Shown: positions 9,413 to 60,390 of the stretch, piece by piece | How the letters are laid out: every line of letters begins with the position of its first letter | How positions within the stretch are numbered: position 1 is the first letter of the stretch | Position numbers and translations under genes: made by a program | Assembly: GCA_031763025.1 (NCBI GenBank) | Contig: JASSKH010000007.1 | Span: forward strand, 14,160,080 to 14,224,079 | Length of the DNA: 64,000 nt | Origin: Macrocystis pyrifera | Lineage: Eukaryota > Sar > Phaeophyceae > Laminariales > Laminariaceae | Reading direction: 5' to 3' | The notes under the pieces: model-generated | Database searches by the model: none | Told to the model about the DNA's origin: nothing | The model's input: the letters and a program-made list of their open reading frames with translations, nothing else

Positions 9413-11275
9413 ATACACCACCGGTGATACATACCAGGTATTTACCGTTACTTTATTGCTATTGTTGTGGCGATTGACCTGGGCTAACTATTAATAGCAG
9501 AACGGGGGATGTCAATGGTTCTCCAACGTTAAGTTGTCCGAGCGTGTGTTAGGGCTCCAGCCAGTGGGCTGGGCGTGGGGACTCTCGGTTTCTGGCAGTG
9601 CGATAGAGAACGAGAATAAGCGGCCGGTGTCGCGGCGGCTCTCGTACCACGCCAGTGGAGCCCCCCCCCTGACGTGGCAGAGAATAATGATACTATAGTA
9701 ACATAACAATTCGAAGGACAAACAACTAAACTATCGAAACCATCATACAACTAACAGCAGCAGTACAGCAGCAGTATCGCTGTTAGCTACGATATCCGTG
9801 TCACATTCGAGGTGAGATGCGTCATGACACAACTGACACGGAACATAGTCGGGGCTTGCACGTCCACAAAGATATTAATTTATTATTATAGCAGCACACC
9901 GCGGGTCTATTTGTTCCACAGATTCCGTGGGGAAATAAATGTTCAAATCGGCAAATGTGTGACTTGTTACACCTGACACTGCTGATTGCCGTGGTACGAG
10001 TGCTATTTTAATAGTCATCGCTGATGTGCACGTCCTTTGGCAACAAGGACGGAAGGGAGGCGTCTTCTGGGCGCCGTTTGGAGTCAGTGGCCAGCCCAGC
10101 CACACTTGAGTCACACACAGGTTGGTACAACAAGCAGTACATGGTCAATCCATCTCAACGCATGTGCACCGGAGCAGGTACGAAATACGACAATCAGCAG
10201 CAGCAGCAGTCGACAGCAAGTAGAAGTACCTGAATACATTCGCATTCCAAAGCAAACACAACGAAAGAGCAGACCGAGGGTGCCTGAGTAGCACACAAGC
10301 AAGGCCCTGGCGTCAACGTCTCACAAAACAGGGTCCGACTGAGCATGCACGTACGCATAATGTTGTACTTGTATTATTATGTGATGTGCTCACCGTTTCT
10401 TCCATGTGCCCCATGCTCGTTCTTCGTGCAGGCTGTGTGCTCCTCCCCGACTTGAACCCCTTTCTTTCGGGCTCCTTTCGGCCGCGGCTAGGCCGCCGTC
10501 AAAGCTTCCTCTGGTTTTGTGGGCTGTCCAGCTGTAGCGGGCTTTTACCCCCAGTGTGGGCCTGTCTGGAAAGTAGATATCGTCCTGTTTCTACCCTCTG
10601 GTACAGGTATAATAGCATCCAGGGAAGTCACCGTGTATGCACCGGTATGCACCCTTCGTGAGGGACGTGTCGATCGGTGTACGGCTGTACGTAGAATGCG
10701 CTGCTTGTGTGAGAATACGGCAGCAGCAGCAGCAGAAACTTCGGCCTATTTTTCATGAGTCGGGAGAACTCTCGCAGCTCCAACAACAGCCGACGCACAT
10801 GTGAGAGCCAGTGTAGATTTCAAAAATCAAAAACAGCCGTCGTAGACCACGGTGCCTGCCACAATGCCCTATTCTGTTTTCGTCGCATAATTTTATTTTC
10901 CGATTTTTGGCCATTTTCCTCGTTTTTTCGTTTTTTTTTTTGCCTTTTGTTTTTCGGGTTCGAAGTTTTAGAACCTTCTCCCGAGCGTTGGTTCCAAATG
11001 TTCGAATTTTCATTTCAGTTACCTGTTGTTGCCTGGTGTTGGGTGCTGCTGCTGTCCTACACGCGGCACCGCACCCCGACATTTGAGCAGTTTGAGTCCT
11101 TGCAACGCACCATCTGCACAAGGACGCCAAGACTTCCTCTGAGAAGAAACAGACTTGCGAGCCAAGGACACACAAGCAAGCACGAGGGTGAGAGAGAGAC
11201 GAGGCGCGAGGAGGGCAGCAGAGAGGGACAGAGATATCGAACAAAGAGATAAGTGACAGGAAACACGCCAACAAC
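9413..11275. other. Upstream region of the KH gene
   Basis: No gene recognised. It holds a TATTAATA at 9489, a short (CAG)n near 10195 and at 10719, and a T-rich stretch at 10905-10970. The promoter and 5' UTR of the KH gene probably lie in the last part, which turns purine-rich (GAGAGAGACGAGG) just before the ATG. No TATA box could be assigned. Confidence 0.4.
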
Positions 11276-14200
11276 ATGGAGCCAAACAGGACTTCTGACC
11301 CGCCCTACGCTCTGGTGCCTCAGCTGGAGGCTCGCATGGCTGCGACAGAGCTGGAACATGAGGGGGCCGACAGGAGCCTCATGCTTGTCAGGGACAAGAT
11401 CGAAACATGCATCCACCGCCTCCGCAAGAGGCCTAGCATCAACGGAGACGAGGTGAACAGACACCGAAAAAACGAAAAAACGACGAACAAATGATACCGG
11501 TCTCAATAGGTCGAGGAACGATCTTCGATCTTCCTCCTTTTTCGTCGTTCTTTTTTCGTGATATTTTGGGACGCTGCTGCTGTCGTCTTTGGTGCTGCCT
11601 CCCGGCTCCGACACTCTCACCGCTGCCATGATGGCCACGCGATTCGCACTCGTACTCGTACTCATAGCCGTTGCCACATAGCCGTTGCCACGCGATGCAG
11701 AGAGCAGGCCAAAGCGTCACCCACGTGGAGAGCGTATGTATGTACCAGTCAATAATATGTATGTACCATCTTTTTTTCTTTGTGCCTCCGTGTGTGTCTC
11801 GACGCTTATCTGACCTGTTCTTGATTATTATTGTTTTTTTTTGTTGGTTTCGTACCACTATTATGGGAAATTTTTGACGTTATTTCTGGAGATTATTTTT
11901 CTAGTTCTGAGGCTCCAAAAATATGTGGATGAAAAATGAGAACCATCTATTATGGCTTCTGATCGTCAAAACTGGTTTTATAATGAGGCGCGCGAAGCGC
12001 GCAAAAAGCGGGCGAGCCTTTTTTTTCTTGGAATTTTCCAAGAAAAAAAAAGTCTCTTCATAGCGGCTCGGATACGAGCGTGGGGTGCCTTGTTTTGAGT
12101 TTTTCTGTATGTGTGTGTGTGTGTGTGGTGGGGTGTGTGTGTGTGTGATTCAACATTTTTTTGGGCAACGTTTGACCACCGCCCTCGACGCACACCGCAC
12201 CAATTCCAGTCCCGGCGGGCTCTGTGGACGCGCACACACAAAAGAGACCTCCTGGTGCTGGTGCGGTGTTGTTGGTTTCCCGCATGATAGGGGCAGAGAA
12301 GTAGTGAGCGCAGTGCGTCACCACGTACAACCTCAGAAGTCAAGAGTCACAGAATCTTACAAATGGGTAGTGGCACCAACCGGTACGTAACCGTCACTTA
12401 AGGAGGCCAAACAGACACAGCAGCATCAAGGTGTACTACTGTGTTCTGGCTGCCGTTACCGATGGACCTCTACGAAAAAAATCAGAATGACTTGCGGATC
12501 TCTAATGGCCGATCGTTGCCTTACGAGGTTTGATTCTAGGAAGTTGTTACGTTAAAACTACAGCAGTAGGGGGGTAGTGCGTGAACATACATGTACTAGA
12601 AGAGGGGGTGCATGGGGGGGGGGGGGGGGTGCTAAGTATCCCCCCCCCCCTCTATTATCCTATATTATATACCTGGTATATATAGGTTGGGTTGGCGTCG
12701 GTTGGCGAGGACGCTGTCAAACACGCATCTCACTGCGTGACCTACACAGCCAGGGTACCGTTTTTTTTTTTTTGGCGGTTACCACGGCTGGCGGTCGAGT
12801 TAGATCATTTTTGTGCGGGGAGAACCTTTACTGCGCACGTGGGGGATGATCGTATCACGTAGTGTGCATATGGTGAGACACCCACAGTGAACTCATTTGC
12901 TGACCAGAAATTAAATCATTCATTGATGCTGTCATCCATATGCAAGAAAATCCGCCTCAAAAGCGGTTCTTAGTAGGATGCAGCTCACCCTTCATACGAC
13001 TCGCCGGACACCTCACGGTGCTTCGCGCTTGGTGCAAGCAGCGTCAGCCTGGTCGGTGAAAACCCGACGTGCTCCGTCCCGGCATTGTAGGGATGCGAGG
13101 GTCTATGGTCATACGATTTCGGCCATGCAGGATAATGAGTACACCCCCCCCCCCTATTATATGGGTTGGATTGGCGTCGGTTGGTAACGACACTGTAAAC
13201 ATGCCGCTCACTACTTGAGCAAGACAACCAGGGTACCGCGCTTTTTTTTTTTTTGGCGGTCGGTCACAGCTGGTTGTCGAGTTAATCATTTGTGCGAGGT
13301 GAACCTATGTCTGCCTGGTCGGTGAAAGCCCGACATGCTCCGTCCCGGCATTGTAGGGATGAGAGGGTCTATGGTCATACGAAATCAACTCATTGAAGCT
13401 GTCATCCATATGCAAGTCCGCCTCACAAGCGGTTCTTAGTAGGATGCAGCTCACCCTTCATGCGACTCGCCGGACACCTCACGGCACTTGGCGCTTGGTG
13501 CAAGCAATGTCTGCCTGGTCGGTGCAAGCCCGACATGCTCCGTCCCGGCATTGTAGGGATGAGAGAGTCTATGGTCATACGACCACGGCCATGCATGAGA
13601 TCGAGTACATATCTCCTATCGAGTACACCCCCCCCCGCGCTGTAGGCGCATGCCGTTTGCTGACGTTTATCACTGATCCTACCAACGTAAGACCGAGCTA
13701 AAGGTTTGGATATTTTAAACAGCGAACGTTTCGGTTTTAACAGTACAACGCTTAAAACGCGCGAAAATCTAACTGGGGGGGGGGGGGCGTGGAGGGGGGA
13801 GGTCGACATGCGCTTCGCTTATTGTATTCCCGAAGCTTAGCGCCAGTTGCGTGCCAAGTATGCACCGAAGCACGCTAGGCCTGATGGTTGTTTCGTAGCT
13901 GAGCACGGCAGTTCCGAATGTTGCGCTGGTTCTTCATTTCAAGAATAATGAAGCGTGTTCCTGCCACGTTTTGATCGATTCGTCGGTATCCGCTGTCCAA
14001 TCGGCGAGACGCTCTCTTTCACTGCGGCAGTGATTCAGACGCTCGGCAAGTCTTCACATTGCCTCTTTCGCATTCTCCGTGTTCGTTCGCCATTTTTGCA
14101 ATACTTCGTGCGCCATACCGTAGGCTCAGTCGCAAAAATCTTATTTCTACCTCGCCCCGCTCATGCCCAACGCTGCAACCGCTCAGCGCTACCTGTGCCC

Positions 14201-15766
14201 CCGCACGACAAGGCTTACTCGTTCGCACACGGAGGCTTTCTCTTGAACGCCGCTGTCGGGTGCATCGATCGACCGATCGAGCCAACCCGCACGAGCGCTC
14301 GCACCTCTGAGGCCGTATGCGAGGGACTCCAAGCGTTTCGTTTGATCAACGGCACCCCTACCTCCGAAGCGCGACGTCAAAACGACGCACACGTCGGACA
14401 TATCATCTACAGATATATCATTTAGACACTAAGCTGCCGTTGTGAGACTTTGTGCAGGATATGTACAGCACAGATCCAACCCAGAAAACACGCCGTAAGA
14501 TCATGCAGATAGTACGGGTCCCACTCGGCAACATGAGCGAAATCATACAGATCACACAGATCAGGAATACATCTATCGGCGCTGCAAGATCTAGATCATC
14601 AAGTGGGAACCGATGGTCTATCTATCTGTTCAATGTGTGAAAGGCTGTGAAGGTCCGCCGCCGGAGGGGGGTTATACGATCAGCGCTCCGGCACAATTTT
14701 TCGCATATTATGAAACCCCCGTTTGTGCTACGTCTGGGAGGGTAACGGGTGAGCTTCAAGCCCGACGGGAGGTACTATAACTCGCCCCGTGCCGCGGAAT
14801 CTGTCGCGGCCTGTTATTCGTTTTTTCAGCTGAGGATGGAGTGGAAGCAAATCGACCTGAAGCTTACGACTACGTCCATGAAGCTGGTGGAAGAGAAGTC
14901 TCTTTTGCGCAGGAAGAATCACATCAGGGCCAGGCTGAAAGAGCTTGCGGGCTTCGAGTCCGTGATGCTAGACATGCAAGCTCTAAAGGTCGGTCATTCT
15001 GTGCGCGTGCGCGCACTGCGCTTGCTTATTTGCTACCACCGCCGCCGTGGATGTACGCACGGCAGAGTGCCACACACGAGGCACCAGCGACAAGGAGACA
15101 GGCTTGAGGGTACCGCGATCAGCGAGGGGAGTTTTAGAGACCATCGCATGTTTCATCGCTGACATATCCAGACACGCATTTATGTCTGGTACGAAGTATG
15201 GTAGGGGCAGAAATACCCTAAGGCGACCGGTTTGCAGAATAGGAGAGCGACGCTATCGTCCTTGGAGAGAAAAGGGGAGGACTGTCTTTGCCGCAGACAC
15301 AGAACCGGAACTCATGCCTCGAATCGCCTCGCTGGGAATGGCGACGCCGCTCTCTCATTCACTGCCCGCGATTCGCAACGCCTGTTCACGCGTAGAACTC
15401 CGCCACGCCGCAAGTTCCCCTCCCGCACACGAGTTGCGATTCGACCCGTCTGAGCACATCGCACACACCCAGAAGGTTTCACCAAGTAGATATCGGCAGC
15501 AGAGGACGGGAAGGAGCTGCATGCCAGGGTGCGTGGCAGCAGTAGCGTAGTTTGTGCTGCAGATGCGCGCGCGCGCTGAACTGACGGCGTTTGTTTGACT
15601 GCAGGACAAGCGCGCGGCCTTGATCGCGGAGAAGCGCGACAAGGCTGCACAGGTGGTCGAGATGAGGCAGGGTCTCAGGCGCCTGCGCCTCGCCTGCCGT
15701 TTGGGCACGTCGGTGCGAGACCTGGTGGCAGAGAGCATCGAGATCCCCCGCGAGGCGATCGGACGG
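11276..15766 (+). CDS. Exons 1-3 of the KH gene: BFR1-like coiled-coil module
   Basis: Exon 1 (59 codons) is a charged helix ending RPSINGDE. Exon 2 (53 codons) contains the stretch LTTTSMKLVEEKSLLRRKNH, which matches the yeast Bfr1 signature SGDLSLVQEKLLVKEM in spacing and character. Exon 3 (54 codons) opens with DKRAALIAEKRDK, very like the Bfr1 stretch NKRAALYKKRDEL, and runs straight into the first KH strand, IEIPREAIGR. All three exons are phase 0 at both ends. Acceptors are good (TTTTTTCAG before exon 2, TTTGACTGCAG before exon 3). The exon 2 donor AAG|GTCGGT is weak. Intron 1 is about 3.4 kb. The Bfr1 resemblance comes from memory of the family, not from a search. Confidence 0.7.
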
Positions 15767-18700
15767 GTGAGCCATGACCCGCCTAACCGATGGGAGGGGT
15801 AGGGGAGAAGGAGGGGGAGGGCTGGATAGTGGGTGACAGTAGACCATTCTTGGTCTGTAGCGTTAGTTGGCACCCAAGCCAACGCTTGGTGAATTACCCT
15901 AGTAGATTTTTTGTTTCTTGTCAGGATTCTTCAGAAGCACTCTGCTGTAGAGGCTTGCACGGTAGGAGCACTTGCTGTTAGTCATCCCCACTATTTTTTT
16001 TCCTGTGACGCCCACGTAGCAGGCGATAGAAGCGGTCTTGTCGTCTTGTTTGAGACTATGCTTTGGCTTTACCACAACGATCGAGTGTAGGCATCTCGAA
16101 TTGAGGGTTTCCAATAGACATGGGATGTACTCAAGAGTAAAAGCTTGGGAGGTGCGGAACGCGCCATCAATGTTGCGGTGCAGACAATGTGACACCCGGA
16201 TAAGCACAGACATCGCTACCTGTAAAGGTTACCGAAAAATTGCGGATTGGTTAATTTACCGAAAATGTGCGGATTGGTTTCAGCTAAGCCAGAGCCGAAG
16301 ACGACTACTGCTGCTGCTGCTGCACGCGATTTTAGTCCATCGATGTCCCCCTCCCCTCACCCATGAGTCGGTGAAAACCCGACGTGCTCTGTCCCGGCAT
16401 TATAGGGATGTGAGGGTCGATGGTCATACGTCTGCGGCCATGCATGATAATGAGTACCCCCCGCCCCCGCCCCCCTATATACTTGGTATGCATAGGTTGG
16501 GTTGGTGTCGGTTGGCGACGACGCTGTAAAACACGCCTCTGACTGCGTGAGCTAGACAGCCAGGGTGCCGTTTTTTATTGTAATTTTGTTTTTGTCGGTT
16601 GCCACGGCTGGCGGTCGAGTTAGATCATTTTTGTGCGGGGGGACCCTCAACTCCGCACAAGGGGGATGATCGTATCACGTAGTGTGTATATGGTAAGGTA
16701 CCCACGAGGCAGTTCCATAGTAAACCCATTGCTGTCTCTGGAAGTCGCCACACCAGAAAATAAATCAATTAATTGACGCTGTCATCCATATGCAAGAACA
16801 TCCGCCTCAAAAGCGGTTCTTAGTAGGATGCAGCTCACCCTTCATGCGACTCGCCGAACACCTAACGGCGCGTCGCGCTTGGTGCAAGCAATGTCTGCCT
16901 GGTAGGCGAAAATCCGACGTGCTCCGTCCCGGTATTATAAAGAGGCGAGGGTCTCGAGGGTCTATGGTCATACGATTACGGCCATGCATATCAATGAGTA
17001 CACCCCCCCCGCCCACCCCCACCCCACTCGTACCACGGGATGTGGAATCAGTTCTGCCGATTGGTTTAGCTTTGCGGTGATTCCAGCGTTTGGTTTGATT
17101 TTCCCCGTGAGTCGAGGGCGCGGGGTGGTTGTAGGGAGGCATGATCATAGTCCGACCATTGCAATGGCTGCACGCAGGTGCTCGGGAAGAAAAGGTCGGC
17201 GCTCACGCAGCTCGAGGCAGAGTGCAATATCGCCGCAGTAGAAGAGTTCAGCAGGTGAGCCCCCCTCCCCTTCCCACGCGCGAGTCCCCAATCCATAGGC
17301 GCAAGAGATAGGGTCAGGTTAGCATCCAGCATCACCACCATGTGCAACTTAGTGTCTGCCTGAGGCCCCAAGCGGCACGCGGTGCTCACACTGTTTGATT
17401 TCCGAGCAGCGCACTTGGGGTGGTGATTGGCAGGAGGGACAGACCTGGGCACGCGCTGTCCCTATGTTGTGCTTGATGGATTCGTTAGTCGTGAAACAGG
17501 GGGCGCTGGTCCTACAGTATGCTGTGAGTACTTGCGCGCGTTCTGTCGGACCCGGCTTCCTTACGGCGGTAAAAAATTCCTGGGCATCGTTTCAGACTCG
17601 GCTAAAACAGAGACACAGCCCGTCCCGAGTTAGATACCAGCGCTTATTAATAGCAAGCTCTGTAGTCTAACCTAAGAAATAAGGTAAATAATACTTTTTG
17701 GGGACGCTGCGAGACAATCAGAGTGAGGAATCATCCTCAGCGGCGAGCGCTACACTCTGATACCGGTAAGTCGTACGGGTACAATAGCCTAGGCTCAACG
17801 TTGTGCAAGGATGGTGTCATAATAAGGTTCCAGGCCTTGCTCATACTCTTGTTGGCGGTCCCATGCTATACCGTGTGGAAATAGCCAGTTGACCAACTAC
17901 CTGTAAGCCTGCGTCTGTTGTTGAGACGGAGTGGGGTGCCTGACCATTACAGTACCTTTGGCAGACCAGAGAAAAAATATTGATCTCCCACAGTTTTTCA
18001 CCGCGGAACGTCGGCTGTCACCTACTCTTTGCCTCTCTGCGGTGGGCCGGCTATCTAGCATCAACCCACCGTTCATTTTCTTCCTGCAGCGTTGTTGACT
18101 CGGCCCGTTCCTCGTGACGATGCCCACAAGCCGTATGGCTTCCTGGTCACGCCGCGCTTTGGATAGCTTGGTTGCCTGTTCTCTTGAGGCCATCGCCCTC
18201 GTCCGCTGACGCCAGCCTTACAACCGGTGCACTGGACTGACCTCTTGCCGCTCTTCTCTTTGCTTGGCAGAATCGACCCCCCCCCCCTGCGACGGCAACA
18301 CGGAAGCCTGGCTCAAACGCCGGCCCTGCTACCCCGGCTACCCCCCCAGCTTTTACGGGGTCGGACACCCTCACCCTACACCTGAGCGGCACCCGCGAGG
18401 GGGTGACGGAAGCGCTTCGCCGCCTCGATATCACCGTCCGCACCATGGAGGCCGCTGTTGAGGCCTACCCGCCCCTCGCGGCCGCCCTCCGCGCCGACCG
18501 GCACGCACTGACACACCGGCTCGAGGAGGAGCTCTGCGTCAAAATTTTCGTTAGCTCTACCGGCCCTGTCTCCGGCGCCGGTTTCGGTGATGCATCTAGC
18601 GGCGAGAGTGATGACGGCATTGAGTTTGATAGAGACAGTGGAGGTGGTGGCGGTGTCGGTGGCGGTGGCGGTGGCGGCGGGGGCAGTGGCGGCGGAGGTG

Positions 18701-21700
18701 ACATTAACCGGGGAGATGAACTGTGTAGCAGCGGTCGACGCGGACGGCCCCACGGCGGAGAGTCCATGGCGGCGGCTGTTTCCTCGATTATTTGTCTGAC
18801 CGGGGTGCCCGAAGACGTCGAGGCAGCGCGGTTGTACTTGGGCCAGCTAGATTGCTTGGAAGTGATTGTTCCCATCGAACGCAAGGCGTTCTCGGCTATC
18901 TACGGGCCTGGCGGCGCCAACCTTCGGCAGATGGAGGTGGGAACCGGCACGTGTGTCTTTTGCCCTGTGGGGGAGGGGATCCTTCCTCACCTCTCGCTTT
19001 AGCCCGTCAACTACTACTGCGAAGAAAATCCCACTTCACGTGCTGAAACCCACGTTATTTCCACCTAGATTGCGTTGACAAGGTGCAGTCAACTATAAAG
19101 AGGTTCATGATACTACTGTACGCGGGAACGACGACCTCCCCTCTGCTCTGTAGCTGTATTTTCGCTGGCGGATCGAAGGCGAAAGCGCTGCATGATTCCC
19201 GTGACTGACTCATATATAGCCGTACTCTCGAAGAGTTACAATGCAGGTATGATTACAATGGTTGCCAAGTTCCCAAACCGAATGCGAAGGAAAAAATGAC
19301 GCAACGCGACGATGCGGCAAGCGAGCGGCGGGACGTGCATGGCGCGTTCTACGCACAAAATAAGAGCGAAACGCCAATAGTATCGCAGTCTCGGCCTTCC
19401 TTGTACGCCTCCAAAAAAATAGAACCTGCAGCAAGTAAATCATCGTAGAGCCTCTTTCCGGCCTTGCCCACTAGGGTGCGTGCGATAGTTCAATTCGGCT
19501 GGGTTATACACATATTTTGAAACCGACGGACAGGAGAAGCTGATTGGTTCAACAGGTGAACCATAAGTTGCTGCGTTTACTAACCTACCTTTTCCCACCG
19601 CAATTAGTTTTTCGTGGGTTGGGGTTTGCTAATATATAAGAAATATGCTACTTGTATGTACAAGAAACCCGTCCCAACCATTTTTTTTGTTTTTTTTCGC
19701 AAACACTTCATGCTTGGTGCCCTTCTGTTCCTCTTGCCGCGCGGCTAAAGTCCGACTTCGGGGTCGTGCTTGACGTGCCGCGCGAGGGAACGCCGAGGGT
19801 TGTCTTGATGGGCGTCCGAGGCGACGTCGAGGCGGCGGCGGCAAAAGTGCGAGAAATATCACTCGAGTTCCGGGAAGTGGAGGAGCGGTGGCCGGTGGAG
19901 ACGTACCAGGTACGAAGATACATCAAATATGCCTGGTGCCTCGCTTGCTTTCAGCTCTTGGCCCGAAGTGGCCCATTGCCTTCGCCGAGGAGGGGGTAGC
20001 GGTTGCGCTCTGGGTCAGGGTGTGGAGAGTGCCCTCGATACCGGTGGATAAAGTACCATCGGTGCCCGGCGCCGCGCGAGAGAAAGCAGTCCGCTCAAAC
20101 TCTCGGGCGCGGCCACGCGAAATCATCGTTTCGCGTACTCACTCATGAATATCGTTTCGTGTGCTCGCCGCCCGTGCGAGCTCTCGCGTTGACTGCGAAA
20201 GCCATTTAGCACTCCTGCTGTACCCGTGTGTTTGATGAGAAGTTGCTAGGAATTACAGCAGTGTGGGGTCCTTTTTGCAGGAGTTTAAGGGTGAAGTGGA
20301 TAAAGCGGTACTTGCCTGTGCAAGCGGGTGCGTTGATTGGCTGGTTATGTACAAGCACATCCCTTTGCAAAGCGAGAAAGCGTTGTAGGACATGGTTTGT
20401 ATCGCCTCTTTCGGGCGAAAGCCTAGCCCTTGCAGAGGATGCTGCCGTTTGCGCTCCTCTCTGGTGCCAACACGCCCATACCGCCCAAGGACGCCAACCT
20501 GGCGCAGCGAGGAGCTGATCGCGCGCCCGCCGTACTGGGACTAACTGCACGGGAGTGTTCTGGTGGTACGATCTCACCCCCCTCACAACGATGCGTAGCA
20601 CAATGTCGACTATAGGAGTCGCTTGTTTTTTTCGAAATATTTATATTTAAAAACAAATGATCGCTTTCGTCCCTCGAGCCGGCCGTCCATATATATGTAC
20701 GCGTATGTTTCTTCAACAGGTGAAATTCCTCCTCCACAACCGCGGCTCGGAGCTAAGAAACATAGTGCAGCAAGTCGGGGGAGGCGTCTTGATGAATATA
20801 TACAGGGACAGGGCGCCGTCCGGACAGGCGACAAATGGGCAAGGTCTCCGCGCAGGGCAGGAGGCGGTGCCCGAGAGCCATCGCGGCGGGGAACGCGAGA
20901 AATCTGCCGCCTTTGTCGGTGCCGTCGAGGTACGTGCTCCAATTTTCGGCGGATTGGGGGAAAATAAAGAGACACTATTATTACGGGGGTCCATAGTTAA
21001 TAGGACCTATGGTGTACATAAAAGCCGATATATTTACCTTTTTTTACAAACAAAATTCGGTCCCGTTAACTATGGACCCCCGTAATAGTAAGATGAAACT
21101 GTGTGCGTGCGAAGAGCGCATACGTTTTTTCTTTTGAGTTTTTCGTTCAAAGCACAGGGTGTGGGTGCGAGTTGAGCGGGGCCTTTGCAGTGTTTCTTGT
21201 GACGGCACGATGCTTTGCATTGTCCACGCGACGTAGCTCAATATTAGCCCCGCTCAGTTTGTATGTCCTGCGCTTTGCAGCTCGGAGAGTGTGTGGAGGT
21301 CAATCAGTGCTTGACGCAGGCGGGGAAATGCAGATGTAACTACTTGTAGTGTAGCACATGAACCAGCTTGGCAGCAGTGGTTATTGTCTATGGGATCTCG
21401 CTACGGCAGCCGGCTGCGGCTGCTTTTGTTTTATGCTTGCTCCACGTCTGTCGGCTTTCCTTGGACAGTTCCCCGAATCCGTAACTCCATTAGCTCGAAC
21501 GAGTCACGGTATATCTCATTAAACACGTTTGTTTCATTGCGGAGGCTGACTGACTCCTTAAGCGTCTCGAAGGGGAACGGAGGTCAACACCGTATCGTGC
21601 CGAAACCGTTCATCTTCTACGCGCCGCCGCACTCGCCAATACTCGATATACCGCTGTTTCAGCGACTGCATGACATTAGACGTTTGCGATTACACGTGTA

Positions 21701-27700: not shown

Positions 27701-30700
27701 TATGGCCATGCATGATGTCGAGTACACTCCCGCCCCCCCCCATCTCGTGGTCAAAGGACTAAGGCAAGTAATAAATGAGTACCCCCCCCCCCCCTGTCAA
27801 TGGTCATACGACAACGGCCATGCGTGAGATCGAGTACATCTCTCCTATCGAGTATGCCCCCCCCCCCCCCCCTGTCTCGGAAGGGATACGTGGTCAATGG
27901 TCAAATGTCTAAGGCAATCAGCAAACTAGTACGTAGCCCTCCCCCCCCCCCTCCCCTGCCACGCGTAACGCATGCGAGACGCCATACCTCGAAATATGGG
28001 TAGCTCTGTGCGAGAGTCAGCCGGTCGGTTGCGGTTGCTTTGGCGACCTGCGAGATGCGAGGGGAGATAAGTTTCACGAGATCATTGTTCACAAGTTAAT
28101 CATGTCTGGGAGCGTTTGCCTTGCCTCGAATTCGGTCGCTGAGCGAGTTTCCTGTTAAAAATAACCTTGACCAAAACGCCCCTCGTTTCGCTACCACCCA
28201 CCCGCGCGAAGCTTGCGACCGTTCACGTCGACCCACCAACCACGGACAACCACAGCGGCATCCGATGTCCACGCCAAACACATTTTCTTTTTCCCCACCA
28301 AGTTGGTTTCTCTTGAGGCTTTATTTGGTCCGAAAACATTTTCTCACTCTTTTTTACGCAGAAGATTTTTGCCTGCGGCGTTCGCCTCGCTTCGTAGAGT
28401 ACAACTTCGAGGTGTTGTTTGTCGTGCTATCCGATGTGTTCCCCCGTAAGACCTTGCCGTTTGACGGTTCCCACATCTTGGGTTGATCCCTCACCTACCA
28501 GGAATCAAGTGAAGCCGACATCATGCTCGACCGTTCAAGATATTCGCTGCGGGTCCGCGGCGCTCCCTCCGTCGTCGAAGAGCGCAGGATCGAGTTGTGC
28601 TCCATGCTATGCTCCGTCTTCCCGGGACAGTTCGAGACGGTATGCGCTCCGCGAAAAGATGTCCCACTACATCAGATAAAATTACGAAAATCCTTGCGAG
28701 TTTTTCCTGAGCAGCAGGTTGTCGGCCGTAGAAATGGGTGGTTACCTCCCTCAGTCTTTCCTTACGTGCCTCGTTCGTTGCTCGTTGCTTTCCTCGTTCT
28801 GAGTTTGTTTGGGAAAACGAATCGAGCGTTTTCCTTTGTCCTCCTTCGTTGCTTCTGCCTTGCTGATTTTTCTTTCTTTGGTACAGTACGTTGCCCAGGA
28901 AGGACACGCGCCTATATTCGTTCGCTTATAATAACATAGCTGGCACCTGGTACCATTCTACCCACAAGCATAAAAACCGCTTGGGTTTTTGTATCAACAC
29001 CCCACATGGTTCTCAAAATTTCCATGCAGAGTGAGATAAATGCTACCTTGCAAGGACCGTATGGGTCATGTACCAAACGCCCAAACAGCAATCCTGATAT
29101 TTTTGTGATACAAGGCAGATGATATGCGCTCTCTGCAACAACGAACTAAGGCGACGACAAAAACAACAGACGAGCCTCCTACTAATAGCGGTACCCGTCA
29201 TATTAATAGCGTTACCCGTCATGCCTCACGATGTATCCTATCATACCACACCCACTCACCCGTAAGGTACAAGATAATTGCCCCTCTCCCTTCTTTGGCG
29301 GCGGGCGTCCGATTTCAGGTGCACGTTCCGCGCGAGGCCCTGGGTGAGGTCTCGAGCGCCCTCGCCCTTGCCGACGCTGCCGCGGCTGCCACCGCGTTCG
29401 GCTCCGGGGGCGGCGACAGCCGGACGCTAGAATCGGCGGTGGCGGCGGCGGCGGGATATCTAGCGGGAGCTGTCACGTTTCCCGGAGGGTGGAGGGGCGA
29501 GACGGGCGTACAGCTGTTGGCCGACTGGCCGTGCTCGTGTGTGCGCGTCATGGGGGAGACAGGAGCGGTGCAGTCAGCGGTGAGATAGGCACGAGAAAGG
29601 GGGGGAACTTAAATATATATGCATACCTGGTATATGCTTTTGTTTTTCATCATCACTTTTAGTTCCCAGCTTAGTTCGTAGGAGGTTTTACCCTCAGCGA
29701 TCTTCTGGACAAGCAGTGGTCACAGGTGTCGTTCCTTCTGCCCCCCCCCCCCCCCCCCCCCCGATATATTATATATTTGGGTTGGCGTCGGTTGGCAACG
29801 ACACTGTACAACATGCCGCTCACTACGTGAGCTAGACATCCAGGGTACCGTTTTTTTTTTTTTTTTTTTTTTTGGCGGTCGCCCACAGCTGGTCGTCTAG
29901 TTAGATCATTTGTGCGAAGTTTAGAACCTTTACTCTGCACAAGGGAATTGATCGTATCACGTAGTGTTCAAGGTACGGCACCCAAGAGGCAGTTACATAG
30001 TACTCCCATTGCTGTCTCTGGAAGTGGCCGCACCGGAAATTAAACTCACTCATTGAAGCTGTCATCCATATGCAAGTCCGCCTCACAAACGGTTCTTAGT
30101 AGAATGCAGCTCACCCTTCATGCGACTCGCCGGACACCTCACGGCGCTTCGCGCTTGGTGCAAGCAATGTCTGTCTGGTCGGTGAAAACCCGACATGCTC
30201 CGTCCCGGCATTGTAGGGAAGCGAGGGTCTATGGTCATACGACTACGGCCATGCATGAGATCGAGTACATCTCTCCTATCGAGTACACCCCCCCCCCCCT
30301 CCTCCCCCCCCCGCTGCGTCCGTCTCGAAAGGGATGCGTGGTCAATGGTGGTCAAATGACTACGGCCATGCACGATAATGAGTACCCCCCCCCCCCCCCC
30401 TCCGGCCCCTGCGTTGGGTATTTCTGTCTCCGCGACAACACCGGCAACGAAAAATCTTTCTCTCGCGACGGCAGGTTCACGCGGTCGGTGTGGCGTTGGC
30501 GAAGTGGTCGGCCCTCGAAGTGGCCGCTGAGGTGGAAGACTGGATGGTGCCGCCCCTCTTCGGAAAGCAGGGAAAAAACATAAAAAAGCTGTCCCAGAGC
30601 ATGGGAGGCATTGTTCTCAAGATCACCGACGGGGTGTGTCGGGGGCGAGCCACGTCCCTGGACGCTGCACGGGTGGGAACTCGGAAGCTGCTCGAGCGGG

Positions 30701-33700
30701 TGAGTGGGGAGAAGAGTAGGAAGGGCGACCCTTGCCCCTCCACCTTGCACGTCGTAGTCACCGCCGACACAGCCTCTTCCTTCGCCGCGAGGTAGACCGT
30801 CGGCGGTGTGTTGTGCCCCCCCTCCGTTAAACCGGCGGCGTAGTTTCTCCGTGCAATCGGCGACCTTTTGACCCTACTTCTTGCCGCAGCTGGCCGTCCG
30901 TCCCTGTCATAACCCTGTCGTTGCCGACATAAAAACATGCAATCCGACTGCGGTTGGGGCGGTCAGGCCATCCGGACTTGGGGGGACCTATTGATACAAC
31001 ACTGCGCTACCCGCTCCTTTGCGGACATTTGAGGTCAATTTTACGACGTCGAGGGCACATATGATTTTTTTTTTTGCCTTCAGTTTTTTTTTTTTCAGGC
31101 GGTGGACTCTCCGCTTTGTGGTGCACAGACAAACCGCGGTTGAAGCGATTCTCGGCCAGCTAGCCGTCCTCCCTGTATCGTGTGCGGGCACCATCACTTG
31201 TGTTTTTGCAGCTCTCTGGACAAGCCGTGGGTCTCAGGTGTCTTCCTTTCCGCCCCCTGTTACTTGCCTTCGTTTTTATCGCGCAGAAGGTTTATTCAGC
31301 ATTCCTACTGCCCGTCGATTATCATGGGAAATTGCTTTCTCACGCGATACATCGTGCTTTCGGCGACGAGAAGAAGGCACATAGAGTATTTGTTTTTTCT
31401 TTTTTTGGTATCCCGTAGGGATTCGAGCCCCGGCCTTCATACGCTATTACGGAGGACCATAGTAAATAGGACCTACGGTGCACACAAAAACCTATATACT
31501 TCCCTGTTTTGACTATTAATAGCAATATGTGGTCGTGACTACTGTGTTCTCCCGTAATATTACGGGGGTCCATAGTTAATAAGACCTATGGTATACACAA
31601 AAACCTATATATTTACCTATTTTTACTATTACGGGGGTCAAATTTTGTTAGTAAAAATAGGTAAATATATAGGTTTTTATGTATACCATAGGTCCTATTA
31701 ACTATGGACCCCCGTAATAACAAAATTTGGTCCCGTTAACTATGGACCCCCGTAATAGTAGTTTTCGGGGTTAACAACTAGACTAACGGGGGGGTCGGCA
31801 TATGCTCGCGTTGGGTCTTGCTGCCGTCGCTTAACTCGCCTCCGACGGCACTCACTGACCCCCCGTGCGCCTCCGCCCCCGCGAACAGGTGAGCGAGCTC
31901 CGTGCGAGGCGAGCGGATGTCAAGGTGTCACCAGCAGCGTTGGCCCGACTGACAAACCGCGGCGGAGCTATCCTCGAAAGGCTGAAGGAGAAGACAGGCA
32001 TTACCGTCGAGATCGGTACCGGAGGGGAAGGCGTCGCAGCGGAGGTACACATCACCGGAGATCCGAACGCCGTCGCTGCAGCTAAGCGTGAGGTGGGTGG
32101 GCCTCCTCCACCGGCATCTGCCCTATACTCGATACCCTCACCCTTCGTGCGACTCGCGGAACACCTCGTTTTCGCTCTTCGAGCGTGGTGCAAGCAATGT
32201 CTGCCTGGTCGGGGAAAACTCGACGTGTTCCGTCCCGGCATTGTAGGTGTGCGAGGGTCTATCGTTTACGACTACGGCCATACATGACATGAGTACCCCC
32301 CTCCCCCTCCCCCCGCGCATGCCTCCTCCAATCAGATTTCCAGTTTGTGACCTGTGCTGGCTTTTCTCCCTGAATATTGACTCATTTTTTTCTGCCTTAT
32401 TTTTTTGTTTTGAAATGTGATTGCCAGTGTCTTACAACGCGCAGGGTGGGTGGGACGGGCAGCGATACATTTATATACAAATGCGCCACACTCAAGTACA
32501 CCTAAAGCGTGGTACAACTGAAACGCCAGAAAGGTCCAAGCGAGAGAAGCGCCTTACCCTCTCGGTTCCCCCCCCCCCCCCCCCCCCCCCCCCCTCCAGC
32601 CCCCTCCAGCTGGCACAGACAGGGTGCGTTTTCACATCGCGTGCTTCCGAAACAATTGTATATACTTCGAAGTATATCTTCTATAGTTCTCATTCGCATA
32701 TTATTTCATCAACACCAGCACGCGCTGACGGCCGGACAAAAAGCATGAAAACCTGAGTATCAAGTATTCCACACCTCGGATGCACGTATAATGAGCTAGA
32801 TAATTTGTATTCCAACACGCCGCTATGGGATGCTGCGCAAGACCTGTACCGTACAGAGCATCAACTATTCCACGTCTCGGACATGCCACGATCTACAGAT
32901 ATATCAGATAGATCATTCGCATCCTAACCTGACGTTTTGAGATGCCGTGCGTGATCTGTGTCGTACACATCCAGCACAGGAAGCTTGTGCCATTCATAGA
33001 CGATGCAGATTTTACGGGTTCCACCTGGCGACGTAAGCTACAACAGATAATACAGATCATACAGAGTACACAGATCATACAGATCATCGTACATATCAGG
33101 AACATATTATCTATCTGCCTTACGAAAGGTCCCAAACATGAACCGGGGGAAACGATTATGTGTCTGGTAGTACTCGTACAGATGTCGTAACTTTTACGTG
33201 GAAAACAGAACACGCACGACCGACGTAATGTCTTGAGCTTGAAAAGCCGAGTATCAACCACTCAATCAGTCGGACTCACAGCTGACGCATATCTTTGTCA
33301 TAGCTTCGATAAATTAATCCCCGATTGAATCGACCTTATTGTAAATAACGCTTGGGTCGTTCTGCCGTCGACGAGGTGGGGTCGCGAATGTCAGCGCAGA
33401 AAGCAGACGATCGATCGGCCCTCACATGATAGGACGCACCGCGTCACGTATGGCAACCGTGTAGTACAGACCCCCAACCAAGCCCTCTGTGCGATGTGTC
33501 TTTGAAAAAATTCACTGGTTCTATATACAAGACCGATAGACACCCGATGGTAGGCAGAATATGATCGCCATCCGAAGAGATAGATGGTCGCCACAGTCGG
33601 CGAAACAGAAAGGGGGAGGGTTATTGGTAGAAAACAGGTTCTATGTAATATGTAGAAACGAAGAAATGAGCGCCTAAATGTTGGAGGTGTCTCTATCAGG

Positions 33701-36317
33701 AGTAGGAACGGTGCTAGGAACGGTGCTACGAACGGTGCTAGGGACGGTGCTCCGCCTCGAAAGAGGTGCGTTGTCAAAATAGTCAAATGGCTAAGGTAAG
33801 CAACGATCAAGTACGCCCCGGTTCCCCCCCGGCATGCGCCACCCGCCACCAATCGTCCGGAGTTACACCGCACAAACCTCGCCGCATACGTATTGATTTT
33901 TTCGTGAGCGATTTGCTTGCCTCTCCCCCCCTCCCTTTATTCGAAATATTCAAAAATGACCAAGGCAAACTTATAATGAGGACGCTCCCCCACCCCCCCC
34001 CGTGTCTCGAAAGGGATGCGTGGTCAATGGTTAAATGACTAAGGCAGGCAACAAACAAGCACGCCCTTCCCCCCCTCCCCCCTCCCCGCGCACGTTTCGA
34101 CGCCAGATCGAGGCGTTGAGTCGCCGACCACAGGACACGCGTTCCGGCAGAGAAGTGGTGGGAGTCGCTCGCCGGTTTGTCGGTGCCGCAGCTGGCAAGG
34201 ACGACCGGTCCATAGCTCCGGCTAGCGGGTCGGACATGAAGGAAATAAACGGCCGAAGCGTCACCAGCGGGTCCGTCGGCGGCGGGAAAACAGACGCGGT
34301 AAGGCGGGAACGCAAAACGAACCGACGGTTGGACTGATGGCGCACAGAAAGATCCGATCAGGCGTTTTTTGCAGGGCTGCTCACGGGTTGGGTCAAACCT
34401 TGCGGGTCAGGTTGGGTCAGGTAGAGTAAAACGGCGGCCCGGCACGATCCATCAGGTTTTGAAAACCTCCCGGCCCGACCCGACCCGATCCCATCCGACT
34501 CGACCCGACCCGACCCAACTCGTGAGATTTCGAAAACTCCATGATCAGAACCGCGGGTTGGGTCATCACCTGTGAAGAGACAGCCCTGTTGCTGTTTTTG
34601 TTTTTCTTTTTTGTTGTTCTTGCGACAGGTCAAGGTTCCAGTAGGTTCACTCGCCCCTTCTTGGGGTGTGTCCCCCCCACATGCCCGGCTTGACCACGTC
34701 TTTTGGGGGACCAACTGATCAGAGTTAGTGGGGCGTAAGGTGTAAGCTTTGCGATGGTAGAAGGGTTGGCATGCGCAGGGGGAGACGGGGAGATGGCTGA
34801 AGATCGGTCGTCGCAAAAATAAGAAGGGCCTACAGTAGGAACGGAGGGTTGGTCGACCCGGTCCAAACAACACACACCAGAGAGACGGAGCTGTCCCGCT
34901 CGATGCATGCAGTCCATGTCGTCAACGATAACGATGCAGTCCGTGTGGTCACTGATTGATAAACAATGCATTGCACCGTCATTTTTTTCTCTAAGTAAGT
35001 TTAGTTTTCGGGCGAGTTGGAGTCTGCAGAGCGCCCCTTAAGTGAGACGCCTCCAAAACTGTACGACTACTGCTACCCATACCGTCTGATCATGTTTCAG
35101 CAGCGGGGTTGGCTGTTGTGCCTTACACCGGAGATCTGAGGAACGCTGCACCCACGCAAATGAGGCCGGTGCACTTGGCACCTTTTTTCTTCTTCACCAC
35201 TACCACCACCACCACCTCTTCTTGTTTTTGTTTGACCTCGTCAGATCGCAGCCGCGCCGGAGCCATCGAGCGCGGGGCTTGACCAACCGAAGGTAGACGG
35301 CGAGGCACAGGCTCGGCAAGAACACGGAGGCCAAGCGCGGGGAGACGATGGTGGTGTTGTCAACACCCTCGGAGACCAGTCGCAGGCGCAACACGCCGTC
35401 AACAAAGTACCAGAGATGATAGCGGCGGCGGCGGCGGTCGGTACAACAGCGGCGATCATGGGTGCGAGAGCCTGCAACTCAGAAGAAGCGCGTGCGACCG
35501 AACAAACGCGCTCGCCGCCTCGTGGCGACGGGGGCAAGGCAATCTCCTCCGGGGGCTACCAGGTACCACCGCTCGGGTGTGCGTCGGATACGATCACGAA
35601 CAATGAACTCCCTCTGAGTAGTGGGGGGGGGGTGCGGAGGCTGTAGCGGGGAGAGAGGCCGCGGGGGCGACTCACGGCTTGCCGTCGCAGCTAGGGGCAC
35701 GTCGCTTCGGTCGGATGTCGGCGAAGACGGAGGCCGAGGCGGACCGGCTTCTAGCGCGCCTTCTTCTTGTGGACAAGGTGGCGGCGGCGGCGGCGGCCGG
35801 AGTCTCGCTTGGGAGGACAGCCGGCGCCGGCGCCGACCACCACCAACACTACCAGCGGCGAGGGCATCATGCACTGTCCTTCTTTCACGAAGGTGCTGCC
35901 ACCGAGGCGACCCACGCTCTGGGGCGCGTAGACGGTGATGCAGGGTACAGCAACCACTCTCCGTCCGCGAGTATGTCCATCTCTGGTGACCACCGGTCGG
36001 TACCGACGACGTTGGCGGCAGCAGGCCCGGTTTCCCCGCAAAGCGCCACCTGCAGCGTTGCACCGCTTCAGCTAGCGCCTATCTCCAGGACGATGGAGGG
36101 GTACGGCGGCTGCAACGTCGGCGGTGGGCAGCGCGCGGGAGCCGCCGTAGCCGCGGTCGATGGCAGCAGCGGGTGCGGAAGCAGCTTCAGCGGGTCTCCC
36201 GCATGTTCCCCTCGCAACGCTCGCTCGCCGTCGCGTCTGTGTGCCGCTGCCGCTCCCGCCTTCGGGACGGAAGCGAAGTACTTCACGTCGCGCAGTGGAC
36301 TTCGCGTTAGGCTTTGA
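11276..36317 (+). CDS. BFR1-like coiled coil fused to a multi-KH (vigilin/SCP160-type) RNA-binding protein
   Basis: I join 20 exons on the plus strand: 11276-11452, 14830-14988, 15605-15766, 17178-17254, 18271-18936, 19751-19909, 20720-20929, 23043-23270, 23712-23951, 24222-24281, 24455-24562, 25170-25346, 26153-27101 (probably minus an 85-nt intron), 28502-28639, 29319-29579, 30475-30699, 31889-32092, 34107-34298, 35245-35562 and 35691-36317. The start is the ATG in AACAACATGGAG; the stop is TGA at 36315-36317. The product is about 1,750 residues, longer than animal vigilin (~1,270). Residues ~1-160 form a charged helical region resembling BFR1. About 13 KH domains follow to ~1,400, then an Ala/Gly/Ser-rich tail. 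By family it should bind mRNA and associate with polysomes or ER. Almost all introns are phase 0. Two junctions are uncertain (exon 4/5 phase; frame change inside exon 13). Exon joins are inference without transcripts; the KH assignment is strong. Confidence 0.82.
12641..13151. repeat. Poly-C-bounded ~520-bp repeat, copy 1
   Basis: Runs from a C tract through TGGTATATATAGGTTGGGTT, a T tract then TTTGGCGGTTACCACGGCTG, AAGCGGTTCTTAGTAGGATG and CCCGGCATTGTAGGGATGCG to GAGTACACCCCCCCCC. In KH gene intron 1. Non-coding in all frames; ORFs on it are shadows. Confidence 0.75.
13152..13631. repeat. Poly-C-bounded repeat, copy 2 (rearranged)
   Basis: Follows copy 1 directly, sharing the C tract. It has a partial duplication of the CCCGGCATTGTAGGGATG module (near 13345 and 13545). 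Together the two form a tandem. Confidence 0.7.
16360..17016. repeat. Poly-C-bounded repeat, copy 3 plus leading fragment
   Basis: A ~100-bp 3' module (16360-16466) is followed by a full unit ending ATGAGTACACCCCCCCC. It sits about 160 bp upstream of KH gene exon 4. Confidence 0.7.
17178..25346 (+). CDS. Exons 4-12 of the KH gene: KH domains 1-7
   Basis: KH1 is split over exons 3-5 (GKKR loop, then LTLHLSGTREGV). KH2 in exon 5 is interrupted by an Asp/Gly/Ser linker with a long glycine run. KH3 has a GPGG loop (exons 5-6), KH4 an NRGS loop (exon 7) and KH5 a GVGG loop (exon 8). KH6 spans exons 9-11 (VGKSARLF, then VRLRGGDEDLDRA). KH7 spans exons 11-12 (VLVRRGLLRQIQAEH, then VVLVRG). Exons 6, 7, 8, 9, 11 and 12 are symmetric phase 0 exons with AG acceptors and GT donors. 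Exon 10 is 60 nt if it ends at GAG|GTGCTC, which gives a perfect KH continuation; a stronger-looking GTAAGT lies 19 nt further on and would break the frame. Exon 4 ends with two leftover bases but exon 5 as read starts in phase 0; see findings. Confidence 0.75.
20981..21085. mobile_element. TTACGGGGG MITE, copy a
   Basis: 105 bp with termini TTACGGGGGTCCATAGTTAA and its inverse ending CCCCCGTAA, flanked by TA on both sides (TA target duplication, Tc1/mariner style). It lies in KH gene intron 7. Confidence 0.85.
22312..22462. repeat. 10-bp minisatellite (ATAGTAATAC/ATGGTAGTAC)n
   Basis: About 15 imperfect tandem units of ~10 bp in KH gene intron 7. Confidence 0.75.
26153..36317 (+). CDS. Exons 13-20 of the KH gene: KH domains 8-13 and C-terminal tail
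   Basis: Exon 13 holds KH8 (GRGRFHLRR loop), a Gly/Asn/Ser linker with a Lys-rich KKKKKG patch, and KH9, whose last strand VTIVGPPGLVENARDAI lies in the next frame. An 85-nt intron 26835-26919 (GTAAGA...GAAG) would join the frames. KH10 is split at WRKIQ|ESSEADI (exons 13-14). KH11 in exon 15 is degenerate and Ala-rich. KH12 (exon 16) has the canonical loop FGKQGKNIKKL. KH13 (exon 17) has NRGGAILERLKEKTG and continues as AAAKRE|IEALSRR into exon 18. Exons 18-20 encode Ser/Gly/Ala-rich sequence with a short ordered stretch, RRFGRMSAKTEAEADRLL. Junctions are phase 0 with standard GT/AG sites. Confidence 0.75.
27632..27945. repeat. Poly-C-linked short modules of the same repeat
   Basis: Three shortened modules (near 27640, 27795 and 27880) separated by C tracts, with GTGGTCAATGGTCAAATG in the last. 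In KH gene intron 13. Confidence 0.65.
29740..30398. repeat. Poly-C-bounded repeat, copy 5 with extra module
   Basis: Full unit in KH gene intron 15, with a 22-nt T tract, followed by a second short module ending GATAATGAGTACCCCC. It ends about 76 bp before exon 16. Confidence 0.7.
31447..31557. mobile_element. TTACGGGGG MITE, copy b, with internal TATTAATA
   Basis: TA-flanked copy in KH gene intron 16. At the point where other copies read TTTTTACTAACAATAT it reads TTTTGACTATTAATAGCAAT, an extra TTAATA-type insertion that looks like an excision footprint. It shares its right TA with copy c. Confidence 0.8.
31560..31755. mobile_element. TTACGGGGG MITE, copy c, with nested copy
   Basis: The outer copy is interrupted at TTTTAC-TA by a second, shorter copy (31629-31717) flanked by TA on both sides. 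After it the outer copy resumes ACAAAATTTGG and ends CCCCCGTAA. The nested insertion shows the TA target duplication directly. Confidence 0.85.
32130..32312. repeat. Poly-C repeat, truncated copy abutting KH exon 17
   Basis: Starts about 38 bp after the exon 17 donor with TTCGTGCGACTCGCGGAACA and ends in CCCCTCCCCC. Only the 3' third of the unit is present. Confidence 0.65.
33705..33757. repeat. 12-bp tandem repeat GGAACGGTGCTA
   Basis: Four near-identical units in KH gene intron 17. Confidence 0.7.
34380..34570. repeat. GGGTC/GACCC-rich foldback after KH exon 18
   Basis: CACGGGTTGGGTCAAACC at the left and CGACCCGACCCGACCC at the right, with AACCGCGGGTTGGGTCATCA at the far end. Can form a hairpin; about 80 bp after the exon 18 donor. 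Confidence 0.5.
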
Positions 36318-54812: not shown

Positions 54813-55044
54813 CTGGAGCTTTGTATCCGTCTGATGATACCTACTCTGCTGTGCGCACCACAGCATGCGTGGTGTGCCTGCTCTGGCTGGGCTGCCTGCT
54901 CTGCATGCGTCCAACTCACAGTCCCGCGTCCCCCCCCCTCCTACTATTTGCGTTTATGCTCATTACAAACCCACGGCCCTTCACCAGAAGGTAGAGTTGA
55001 ACCAAAATCGCAATTTTGTCCTTGTATACTCTCTCTCCGTGTGC
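54813..55044. promoter_or_regulatory. Divergent 232-bp promoter between aldolase and TEN1-like genes
   Basis: The two start codons point away from each other with 232 bp between them, so both 5' UTRs and core promoters must lie here or overlap the opposite gene. The interval is mixed in composition, with CCCCCCCCTCCTACT near 54940 and AT-richer sequence toward TEN1. I see no clear TATA box. The bidirectional role is inferred from geometry only. Confidence 0.45.
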
Positions 55045-55605: not shown

Positions 55606-55646
<41 letters not shown>

Positions 55647-60189: not shown

Positions 60190-60390
60190 GTGTGTGTGAG
60201 AGAGGTGTTAGAGAGAGAACCTTTGAATATAGAGATAAACAGAAAGAGAGAGAAAGAAGGCAGGGAGGGAGAGGCAGAGATATAGAAAGATAGAGAGAGA
60301 CAGCAACATAAAGAGGTAGAGAGGGAGCGATAGAGATGGAGAGAAAGGCAGAAAGAGACGCACACGCAGAGAGAGCGAAGCCGCAACGAC
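60190..60390. repeat. GA-rich microsatellite after ATG12 exon 2
   Basis: Impure (AGAG)n purine tract beginning at the exon 2 donor. The open frame through it is low complexity. Confidence 0.7.

What the first reader, a model, noticed from the sequence alone, without database searches (positions are those of the whole stretch)
11276..36317. Apparent fusion of a BFR1-like coiled coil with a multi-KH vigilin-like protein
Exons 2-3 read like the conserved coil of yeast Bfr1 (LVEEKSLLRR; DKRAALIAEKRDK) and exon 3 runs without a break into KH1 of a ~13-KH protein. In yeast, Bfr1 and the multi-KH protein Scp160 are separate proteins that associate in polysomal mRNP complexes. A single-chain version would be direct evolutionary support for that partnership and a possibly undescribed architecture.
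Basis: partly seen in the sequence, partly recalled or inferred. Interest (0 to 1): 0.82.

Follow-up and report, generated by a model that had tools for sequence, protein, structure and literature searches.

The report
Kelp multi-KH protein with helical head
This giant-kelp gene encodes a vigilin-like RNA-binding protein made of about thirteen repeated KH modules with an extra helical segment at its front, but the claim that this front part is the yeast protein Bfr1 fused on could not be shown.

Summary
One correction: exon 4 lies at 17178-17237. With it KH1, spread over exons 3-5, passes Pfam's KH_1 cut-off (25.1 vs 21.5 bits), so exon 3 joins the helical N-terminus and KH1 in one chain. Five of 13 KH positions are well supported by sequence, a sixth by structure prediction; seven are degenerate.

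BFR1 identity is not shown. No held library has a BFR1 model. Two Bfr1-like genome queries reported nothing significant, not even these exons. Papers describe a separate Bfr1 homologue in Plasmodium and a Bfr1-type relative in the brown alga Ectocarpus. Verdict: a vigilin/Scp160-like protein with a helical N-terminal extension; a true BFR1-Scp160 fusion remains possible (0.18).

The parts
11276..11452 (+). exon 1, aa 1-59; N-terminal helix (about aa 12-50)
   Evidence: first ATG of its frame after the upstream stop; model frame best of six; heptad amphipathicity, 10/2000 shuffles reach it
14830..14988 (+). exon 2, aa 60-112; helix-rich, holds the motif LVEEKSLLRR
   Evidence: GT-AG, phase 0; frame best of six
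15605..15766 (+). exon 3, aa 113-166; end of the helical segment (DKRAALIAEKRDK) and start of KH1
   Evidence: the KH_1 match begins in this exon
17178..17237 (+). exon 4 (corrected), aa 167-186; degenerate GxxG loop (GKKR) and helix of KH1
   Evidence: best of 238 candidate exons, 13.0 bits, next 7.7; with it KH1 passes the Pfam cut-off, with my first exon 4 no family matches
18271..18936 (+). exon 5, aa 187-408; end of KH1, KH2 (degenerate, Gly-rich insert), start of KH3
   Evidence: KH_1 27 bits, E 3.8e-6, on the KH3 start
19751..19909 (+). exon 6, aa 409-461; end of KH3, start of KH4
   Evidence: KH3 spans exons 5-6; 0/500 shuffles
20720..20929 (+). exon 7, aa 462-531; KH4 (degenerate)
   Evidence: 25/500 shuffles reach its score
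23043..23270 (+). exon 8, aa 532-607; KH5 with GVGG loop
   Evidence: KH_1 23.6 bits, E 4.5e-5
23712..23951 (+). exon 9, aa 608-687; first part of KH6 (degenerate)
   Evidence: 64/500 shuffles
24401..24562 (+). exon 10, aa 688-741; end of KH6, start of KH7
   Evidence: frame best of six
25170..25346 (+). exon 11, aa 742-800; KH7 (degenerate)
   Evidence: 15/500 shuffles
26153..26788 (+). exon 12, aa 801-1012; KH8 and first part of KH9 with long low-complexity insert; 3' end uncertain
   Evidence: KH8 model pLDDT 89.4, beta-alpha-alpha-beta-beta-alpha; KH folds among its best PDB matches
26862..27101 (+). exon 13, aa 1013-1092; end of KH9, start of KH10; 5' boundary uncertain (73-nt intron in GC-rich repeat)
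   Evidence: frame best of six
28502..28639 (+). exon 14, aa 1093-1138; end of KH10
   Evidence: 5/500 shuffles for KH10
29319..29579 (+). exon 15, aa 1139-1225; KH11 (degenerate)
   Evidence: 79/500 shuffles
30475..30699 (+). exon 16, aa 1226-1300; end of KH11, KH12 with GKQG loop
   Evidence: 0/500 shuffles; no Pfam family on its open frame alone
31889..32092 (+). exon 17, aa 1301-1368; KH13
   Evidence: KH_1 25.5 bits, E 1.1e-5
35245..35562 (+). exon 18, aa 1369-1474; low-complexity tail
   Evidence: frame best of six
35691..36317 (+). exon 19, aa 1475-1682 plus stop; low-complexity tail

Best explanation
The gene encodes the giant kelp's vigilin/Scp160-type RNA-binding protein: a long chain of about 13 type I KH modules, of which three keep an intact RNA-gripping GxxG loop (KH3 GPGG, KH5 GVGG, KH12 GKQG), preceded by a helix-rich segment of about 150 aa. 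Most likely (inferred) the intact KHs grip single-stranded mRNA at several points at once, the degenerate KHs act as spacers and protein-contact surfaces, and the N-terminal helices dimerise the protein or dock it to a partner such as a polysome or ER-bound mRNP component. The helices need not be descended from Bfr1. Shown by sequence: the gene model, one open chain across the predicted exons, KH identity of six modules. Inferred: transcription as one mRNA, RNA binding, the docking role, ER/polysome location, orthology with vigilin.
For: Gene model and reading frames. Exon 3 joins helices to KH1. KH_1 over its cut-off in 3 of 10 open frames given, in KH1 and at E 1.5e-28 on the pre-correction chain. 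KH8, degenerate by sequence, models as a KH at pLDDT 89.4; the 50 listed of 961 PDB matches include vigilin KH1, KH12, KH6 and KH4. KH_Vigilin 25.9 bits on KH13, just under its cut-off of 27. In 14 stretches fetched around 16 of the 17 other KH places of the genome, the richest loci show four KH-like matches (C211 and C223, rough), so this is the longest array seen. Vigilin biology: 15 KHs binding ER mRNAs multivalently (PMC9117268, passages).
Against: KH_Vigilin did not reach its cut-off. By sequence, the KH1-KH6 part matches IGF2BP1 best in the PDB (E 9.1e-5), with vigilin chains only at E 0.23 and 0.33, and the KH8 model matches FUBP1 first: neither singles out vigilin. A six-frame genome search with KH_Vigilin found nothing, controls included, so it is uninformative. 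No orthologue from another species could be examined. Seven KH positions are not clearly supported and the KH2 model is poor (pLDDT 51.6). No RNA or protein evidence was available. The KH_1 search of the genome at E 0.001 listed 17 places, none in this window, which shows how divergent the single exons are.
Confidence: 0.7

Rival explanations
1. A true fusion: exons 1-3 descend from a BFR1 gene (shortened), joined to the Scp160/vigilin orthologue, so that the two partners of the yeast mRNP sit in one chain.
For: Both short motifs seen in yeast Bfr1 occur in the same order with a shortened spacer, and MAFFT places them so (yeast sequence recalled, second fungus-like sequence recalled and unverified). 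An alignment of about 80 aa with one short gap scores 60; 21 of 2000 plain and 26 of 2000 heptad-preserving shuffles reach it. Against the recalled Bfr1 core, the exon-2 frame ranks first of 1102 open frames of the window and fetched loci (53, next 52, a Gln-rich frame), and 0 of 476 locus frames (first 150 aa) reach 83.7. The N-terminus itself scores lower against tropomyosin (66.3) than against Bfr1 (83.7). In yeast the two proteins interact and mark the same transcripts (PMC8783092; PMC11571813; passages).
Against: Tropomyosin windows score higher against Bfr1 (95.6-105.8) than this N-terminus does (83.7). Genome searches with two Bfr1-like queries do not report these exons. Only about 150 aa precede KH1. 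A Bfr1 homologue under its own gene number in Plasmodium and a Bfr1-type relative reported in Ectocarpus make a separate kelp BFR1 likely, though I did not find one.
Confidence: 0.18
2. The N-terminal helices are a lineage-specific dimerisation or docking extension of a kelp KH protein, of no known family, that resembles Bfr1 only through helix-rich, charged composition. (This is the N-terminal half of the best explanation, stated on its own.)
For: The exon-1 helix is clearly amphipathic (10/2000); exons 2-3 are rich in helix formers without clear heptads; no family over cut-off; no other significant match in the genome except a 194-bp copy of exon 1.
Against: The paired motifs in order are more than plain composition usually gives (23 of 3000 plain shuffles reach the score).
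Confidence: 0.6
3. Exons 1-2 belong to a different, upstream transcript and the KH protein starts in exon 3.
For: No RNA evidence here; exon 3 has an in-frame ATG at its codon 20, after the DKRAAL motif, so a start there is not excluded; intron 1 is 3.4 kb and carries repeats; exon 1 has a 99.5% ectopic copy on another contig.
Against: Phase-compatible GT-AG introns and coding frame best of six in exons 1-3; the codons of exon 3 before that ATG are open and in the same coding frame.
Confidence: 0.1

Closest known systems
Vigilin / HDLBP and yeast Scp160
   Same: Long tandem array of type I KH modules in a single large protein (HDLBP is given 15 KHs in PMC9117268, passages).
   Different: About 13 positions, three intact GxxG loops; helix-rich N-terminal segment of about 150 aa; KH_Vigilin below its cut-off.
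Bfr1 family (PTHR31027 / IPR039604; yeast Bfr1, T. brucei ERBP1, P. falciparum PF3D7_0617200)
   Same: Helix-rich segment with two short motifs in the Bfr1 order.
   Different: Similarity no better than that of an unrelated coiled coil; only about 150 aa; continuous with KH modules, whereas yeast Bfr1 and ERBP1 are described as lacking canonical RNA-binding domains. For the Plasmodium protein the passages do not say; it is not among the P. falciparum KH proteins named in the passages of PMC10734933.
P. falciparum PREBP (four-KH protein) and apicomplexan KH proteins
   Same: Multi-KH protein in a SAR lineage; a Bfr1 homologue was among the four leading candidates from the same purification (PMC3764013, passages).
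   Different: Four KHs; no Bfr1-like N-terminus is described in the passages read; role proposed in transcription.

Membership tests
Vigilin/Scp160 | long tandem array (about 13-15) of type I KH modules in one chain | tested here: inconclusive
   13 positions in order; 5 of 13 with 0/500 shuffles, KH8 by structure; the other 7 weak, KH2 model unusable
Vigilin/Scp160 | match to Pfam KH_Vigilin over its cut-off | tested here: not met
   25.9 bits versus 27
Vigilin/Scp160 | orthology by phylogeny with other eukaryotes | not testable with these tools
   for this genome no relatives and no file are given; no eukaryotic genome collection is offered
BFR1 (PTHR31027) | match to the family profile | not testable with these tools
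   PANTHER/InterPro not held; the recalled yeast sequence finds no Pfam family over its cut-off and no PDB chain at E 0.01
BFR1 (PTHR31027) | sequence similarity to Bfr1 beyond that of any helix-rich coil | tested here: not met
   83.7 versus 95.6-105.8 for three tropomyosin windows; 69 of 3000 heptad-preserving shuffles reach the score; sequences recalled
BFR1 (PTHR31027) | two conserved motifs in order | tested here: inconclusive
   aligned by MAFFT, but against two sequences from memory, one unverified
BFR1 (PTHR31027) | protein of about 470 aa without KH domains (length recalled) | tested here: not met
   about 150 aa precede KH1 in one chain

The most novel reading that the evidence does not exclude
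Brown algae carry a natural single-chain fusion of a shortened BFR1 and the Scp160/vigilin orthologue, freezing in one polypeptide a partnership that in yeast is an RNA-dependent association of two proteins.
Probability: 0.18. Interest if true: 0.72.

Novelty: new variant of a known kind. Interest (0 to 1): 0.38.

Why it matters
If the N-terminus were BFR1, it would be a Rosetta-stone fusion supporting a direct Bfr1-Scp160 partnership across eukaryotes. In yeast the co-precipitation is RNA-dependent (PMC8783092, passages), so direct contact is an open question. Even without that, a vigilin-like array with a helical head in a multicellular brown alga gives a testable handle on mRNP docking outside fungi and animals.

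Tried and rejected
Rejected: exon 4 at 15935-15961 (my first model; KH1 then matches no family). Rejected as a kelp BFR1: C221:9436282-9436518, the only hit of the recalled yeast Bfr1 (E 2.0, 27% identity); its frame is low-complexity. An HMM scan of loci used one seed read on the wrong strand (from L005); the seed was dropped, so serves only for rough KH counts. In one search the shuffle test of the KHs returned no scores (a wrong option); it was rerun, where 5,521 of 6,500 shuffles got a score and the rest were counted as lower. The KH2 structure prediction was too poor to use. Missing exons in introns 1 and 2: of 232 and 55 candidates of 45 nt or more, the best have 0.15 and 0.31 log-odds per codon. 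The latter (57 nt, 15490-15546) is in the range of accepted exons (0.20-0.60) and is too short to judge, so an extra exon between exons 2 and 3 is not excluded. Literature: ten searches, one of them for the organism and nine on the subject. I saw no title or abstract start describing a BFR1-KH fusion or a brown-alga vigilin. The library holds open-licence papers only, and searches listed 20 of 54, 37 and 35 papers.

Full report
WHERE. The window lies in an assembly of 537,376,219 bases in 223 contigs. That is the size and contig number given for giant kelp, Macrocystis pyrifera (537 Mb, 223; PMC10498591, passages). The naming rests on that match alone.

GENE MODEL. I first took a 27-nt exon 4 at 15935-15961. 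A scan of 238 phase-0 AG...GT candidates of 15-150 nt in that intron, each joined to exons 3 and 5 and scored with a KH profile (ten seeds, four from this gene), put 17178-17237 first (13.0 bits; the next 7.7; my first choice 2.5; no exon 2.6). With it, KH1 reaches Pfam KH_1 at 25.1 bits (cut-off 21.5), beginning in exon 3; with the 27-nt exon it reaches nothing. The final model has 19 exons, 18 GT-AG introns all of phase 0, and 1,682 aa. Codon log-odds trained on exons 5-17 favour the model frame over the other five in 19 of 19 exons, including all 6 exons outside training. The boundary of exons 12 and 13 lies in a GC-rich repeat and is uncertain. Exons 18-19 are low complexity and rest on frame and splice sites alone. 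A further short exon between exons 2 and 3 (15490-15546, 0.31 log-odds per codon) is not excluded. Nor is a start at an in-frame ATG in exon 3.

KH ARRAY. Pfam KH_1 passes its cut-off in three separate open frames (27.0, 23.6, 25.5 bits; 3 of 10 given), in KH1 and, on the pre-correction chain, at E 1.5e-28. I marked 13 KH positions by eye. Against an HMM built from six KHs of other genes of the same genome, 0 of 500 shuffles reach the scores of KH1, 3, 5, 12 and 13. The other eight are reached by 27 (KH2), 25 (KH4), 64 (KH6), 15 (KH7), 28 (KH8), 22 (KH9), 5 (KH10) and 79 (KH11) of 500. KH8, aligned with three other KHs of the gene, models at pLDDT 89.4 with the beta-alpha-alpha-beta-beta-alpha order. 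The 50 listed of its 961 PDB matches are mostly named KH domains, or PNPase, which carries one (recalled). FUBP1 comes first, human vigilin KH1 second; no match had E at or below 0.001. KH2 could not be modelled (pLDDT 51.6). By sequence, the KH1-KH6 part matches IGF2BP1 best among solved structures (E 9.1e-5), vigilin only at 0.23 and 0.33. Intact GxxG loops are seen in KH3, KH5 and KH12 only. The family search of the genome listed 17 KH places, none in this window. In 14 stretches fetched around 16 of these 17 places, the richest loci show four KH-like matches (rough). This gene is thus the longest KH array seen, and the best candidate for the kelp vigilin/Scp160. KH_Vigilin itself stays just under its cut-off (25.9 vs 27), so the vigilin label rests on architecture.

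THE N-TERMINUS. Residues 1-154 are rich in helix formers. The exon-1 helix has a significant heptad pattern (10 of 2000 shuffles reach it); exon 2 (1004 of 2000; its first part alone 226) and aa 109-145 (496 of 2000) do not, so 'coiled coil' is supported only for exon 1. Pfam and NCBIfam give only sub-cut-off matches (best E 0.023 and 0.048). The only low PDB E-value is to a designed repeat protein, with no stretch passing on its own.

IS IT BFR1? No BFR1 model is in the held libraries: the yeast sequence, recalled, matches no Pfam family over its cut-off and no PDB chain at E 0.01. Pairwise tests are therefore against a sequence from memory. In favour: 'LVEEKSLL' lies opposite 'LVQEKLLV' in an alignment of about 80 aa (score 60; 21 of 2000 plain and 26 of 2000 heptad shuffles reach it). 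'KRAAL' lies opposite 'KRAAL' when long gaps are allowed (83.7; 23 of 3000 plain, 69 of 3000 heptad-preserving and 73 of 3000 window shuffles). MAFFT places both motifs in the same order. None of 476 open frames from the fetched loci (first 150 aa) scores as high. The exon-2 frame ranks first of 1102 open frames against the Bfr1 core, narrowly (53 vs 52). The N-terminus scores only 66.3 against tropomyosin. Against: three tropomyosin windows score 95.6-105.8 against Bfr1, so helix-rich charged proteins reach and pass this level without kinship. The genome search with yeast Bfr1 did not report these exons, nor did an unverified fungus-like core. The chain has room for about a third of Bfr1 (length recalled) before KH1. 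I conclude that BFR1 kinship is possible but unproven.

CONTEXT FROM PAPERS (passages only). Scp160 and Bfr1 are an interacting pair in yeast, co-precipitation being RNA-dependent; Bfr1 homologues are predicted in nematodes and protists (PMC8783092). The two give practically the same RNA-tagging profile (PMC11571813). A Bfr1-type relative is reported for Ectocarpus; the term 'KH domain' does not occur in that paper's main text (PMC7025706). In Plasmodium the BFR1 homologue has its own gene number (PMC10449492) and was among four leading candidates from the purification that gave the four-KH protein PREBP (PMC3764013). A separate BFR1 in kelp is therefore expected, though my searches did not find one.

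VERDICT. A well-supported gene model for a single-chain, vigilin-like multi-KH protein with a helical N-terminal extension; the BFR1 label is a lead, not a finding. Interest is moderate and would rise sharply if a BFR1 profile confirmed the head.

Noticed in passing
L025:4741-4934 (around C219:13116736-13116909, - strand); source window 11252-11445: A 194-bp piece covering most of exon 1 (plus 24 bp upstream of the ATG) is copied at 99.5% identity on another contig, close to a small hairpin; the one flank tested is single-copy in the genome, the other search did not complete. Looks like a recent ectopic insertion of a gene fragment.
   Followed up: partly
window 12666-13636, 16367-17035, 27635-27871, 29756-30302, 32208-32309: Interspersed repeats (families of 76-249 nt, up to 7 copies) sit in five introns of the gene (introns 1, 3, 13, 15, 17).
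   Followed up: partly
window 20976-21091, 31442-31760, and several places in 48066-63344: A short repeat of about 110 bp ('TATTACGGGGGTCCATAG...') with many copies in the window and copies on two other contigs (L010, L013); the copy at L025:3371-3479 has inverted arms.
   Followed up: no
L014:7560-8743 and L015:4399-5100 (C211:16867559-16875099): Four strong KH matches close together on another contig, probably one four-KH gene of FUBP/PCBP-like plan (family name recalled).
   Followed up: no
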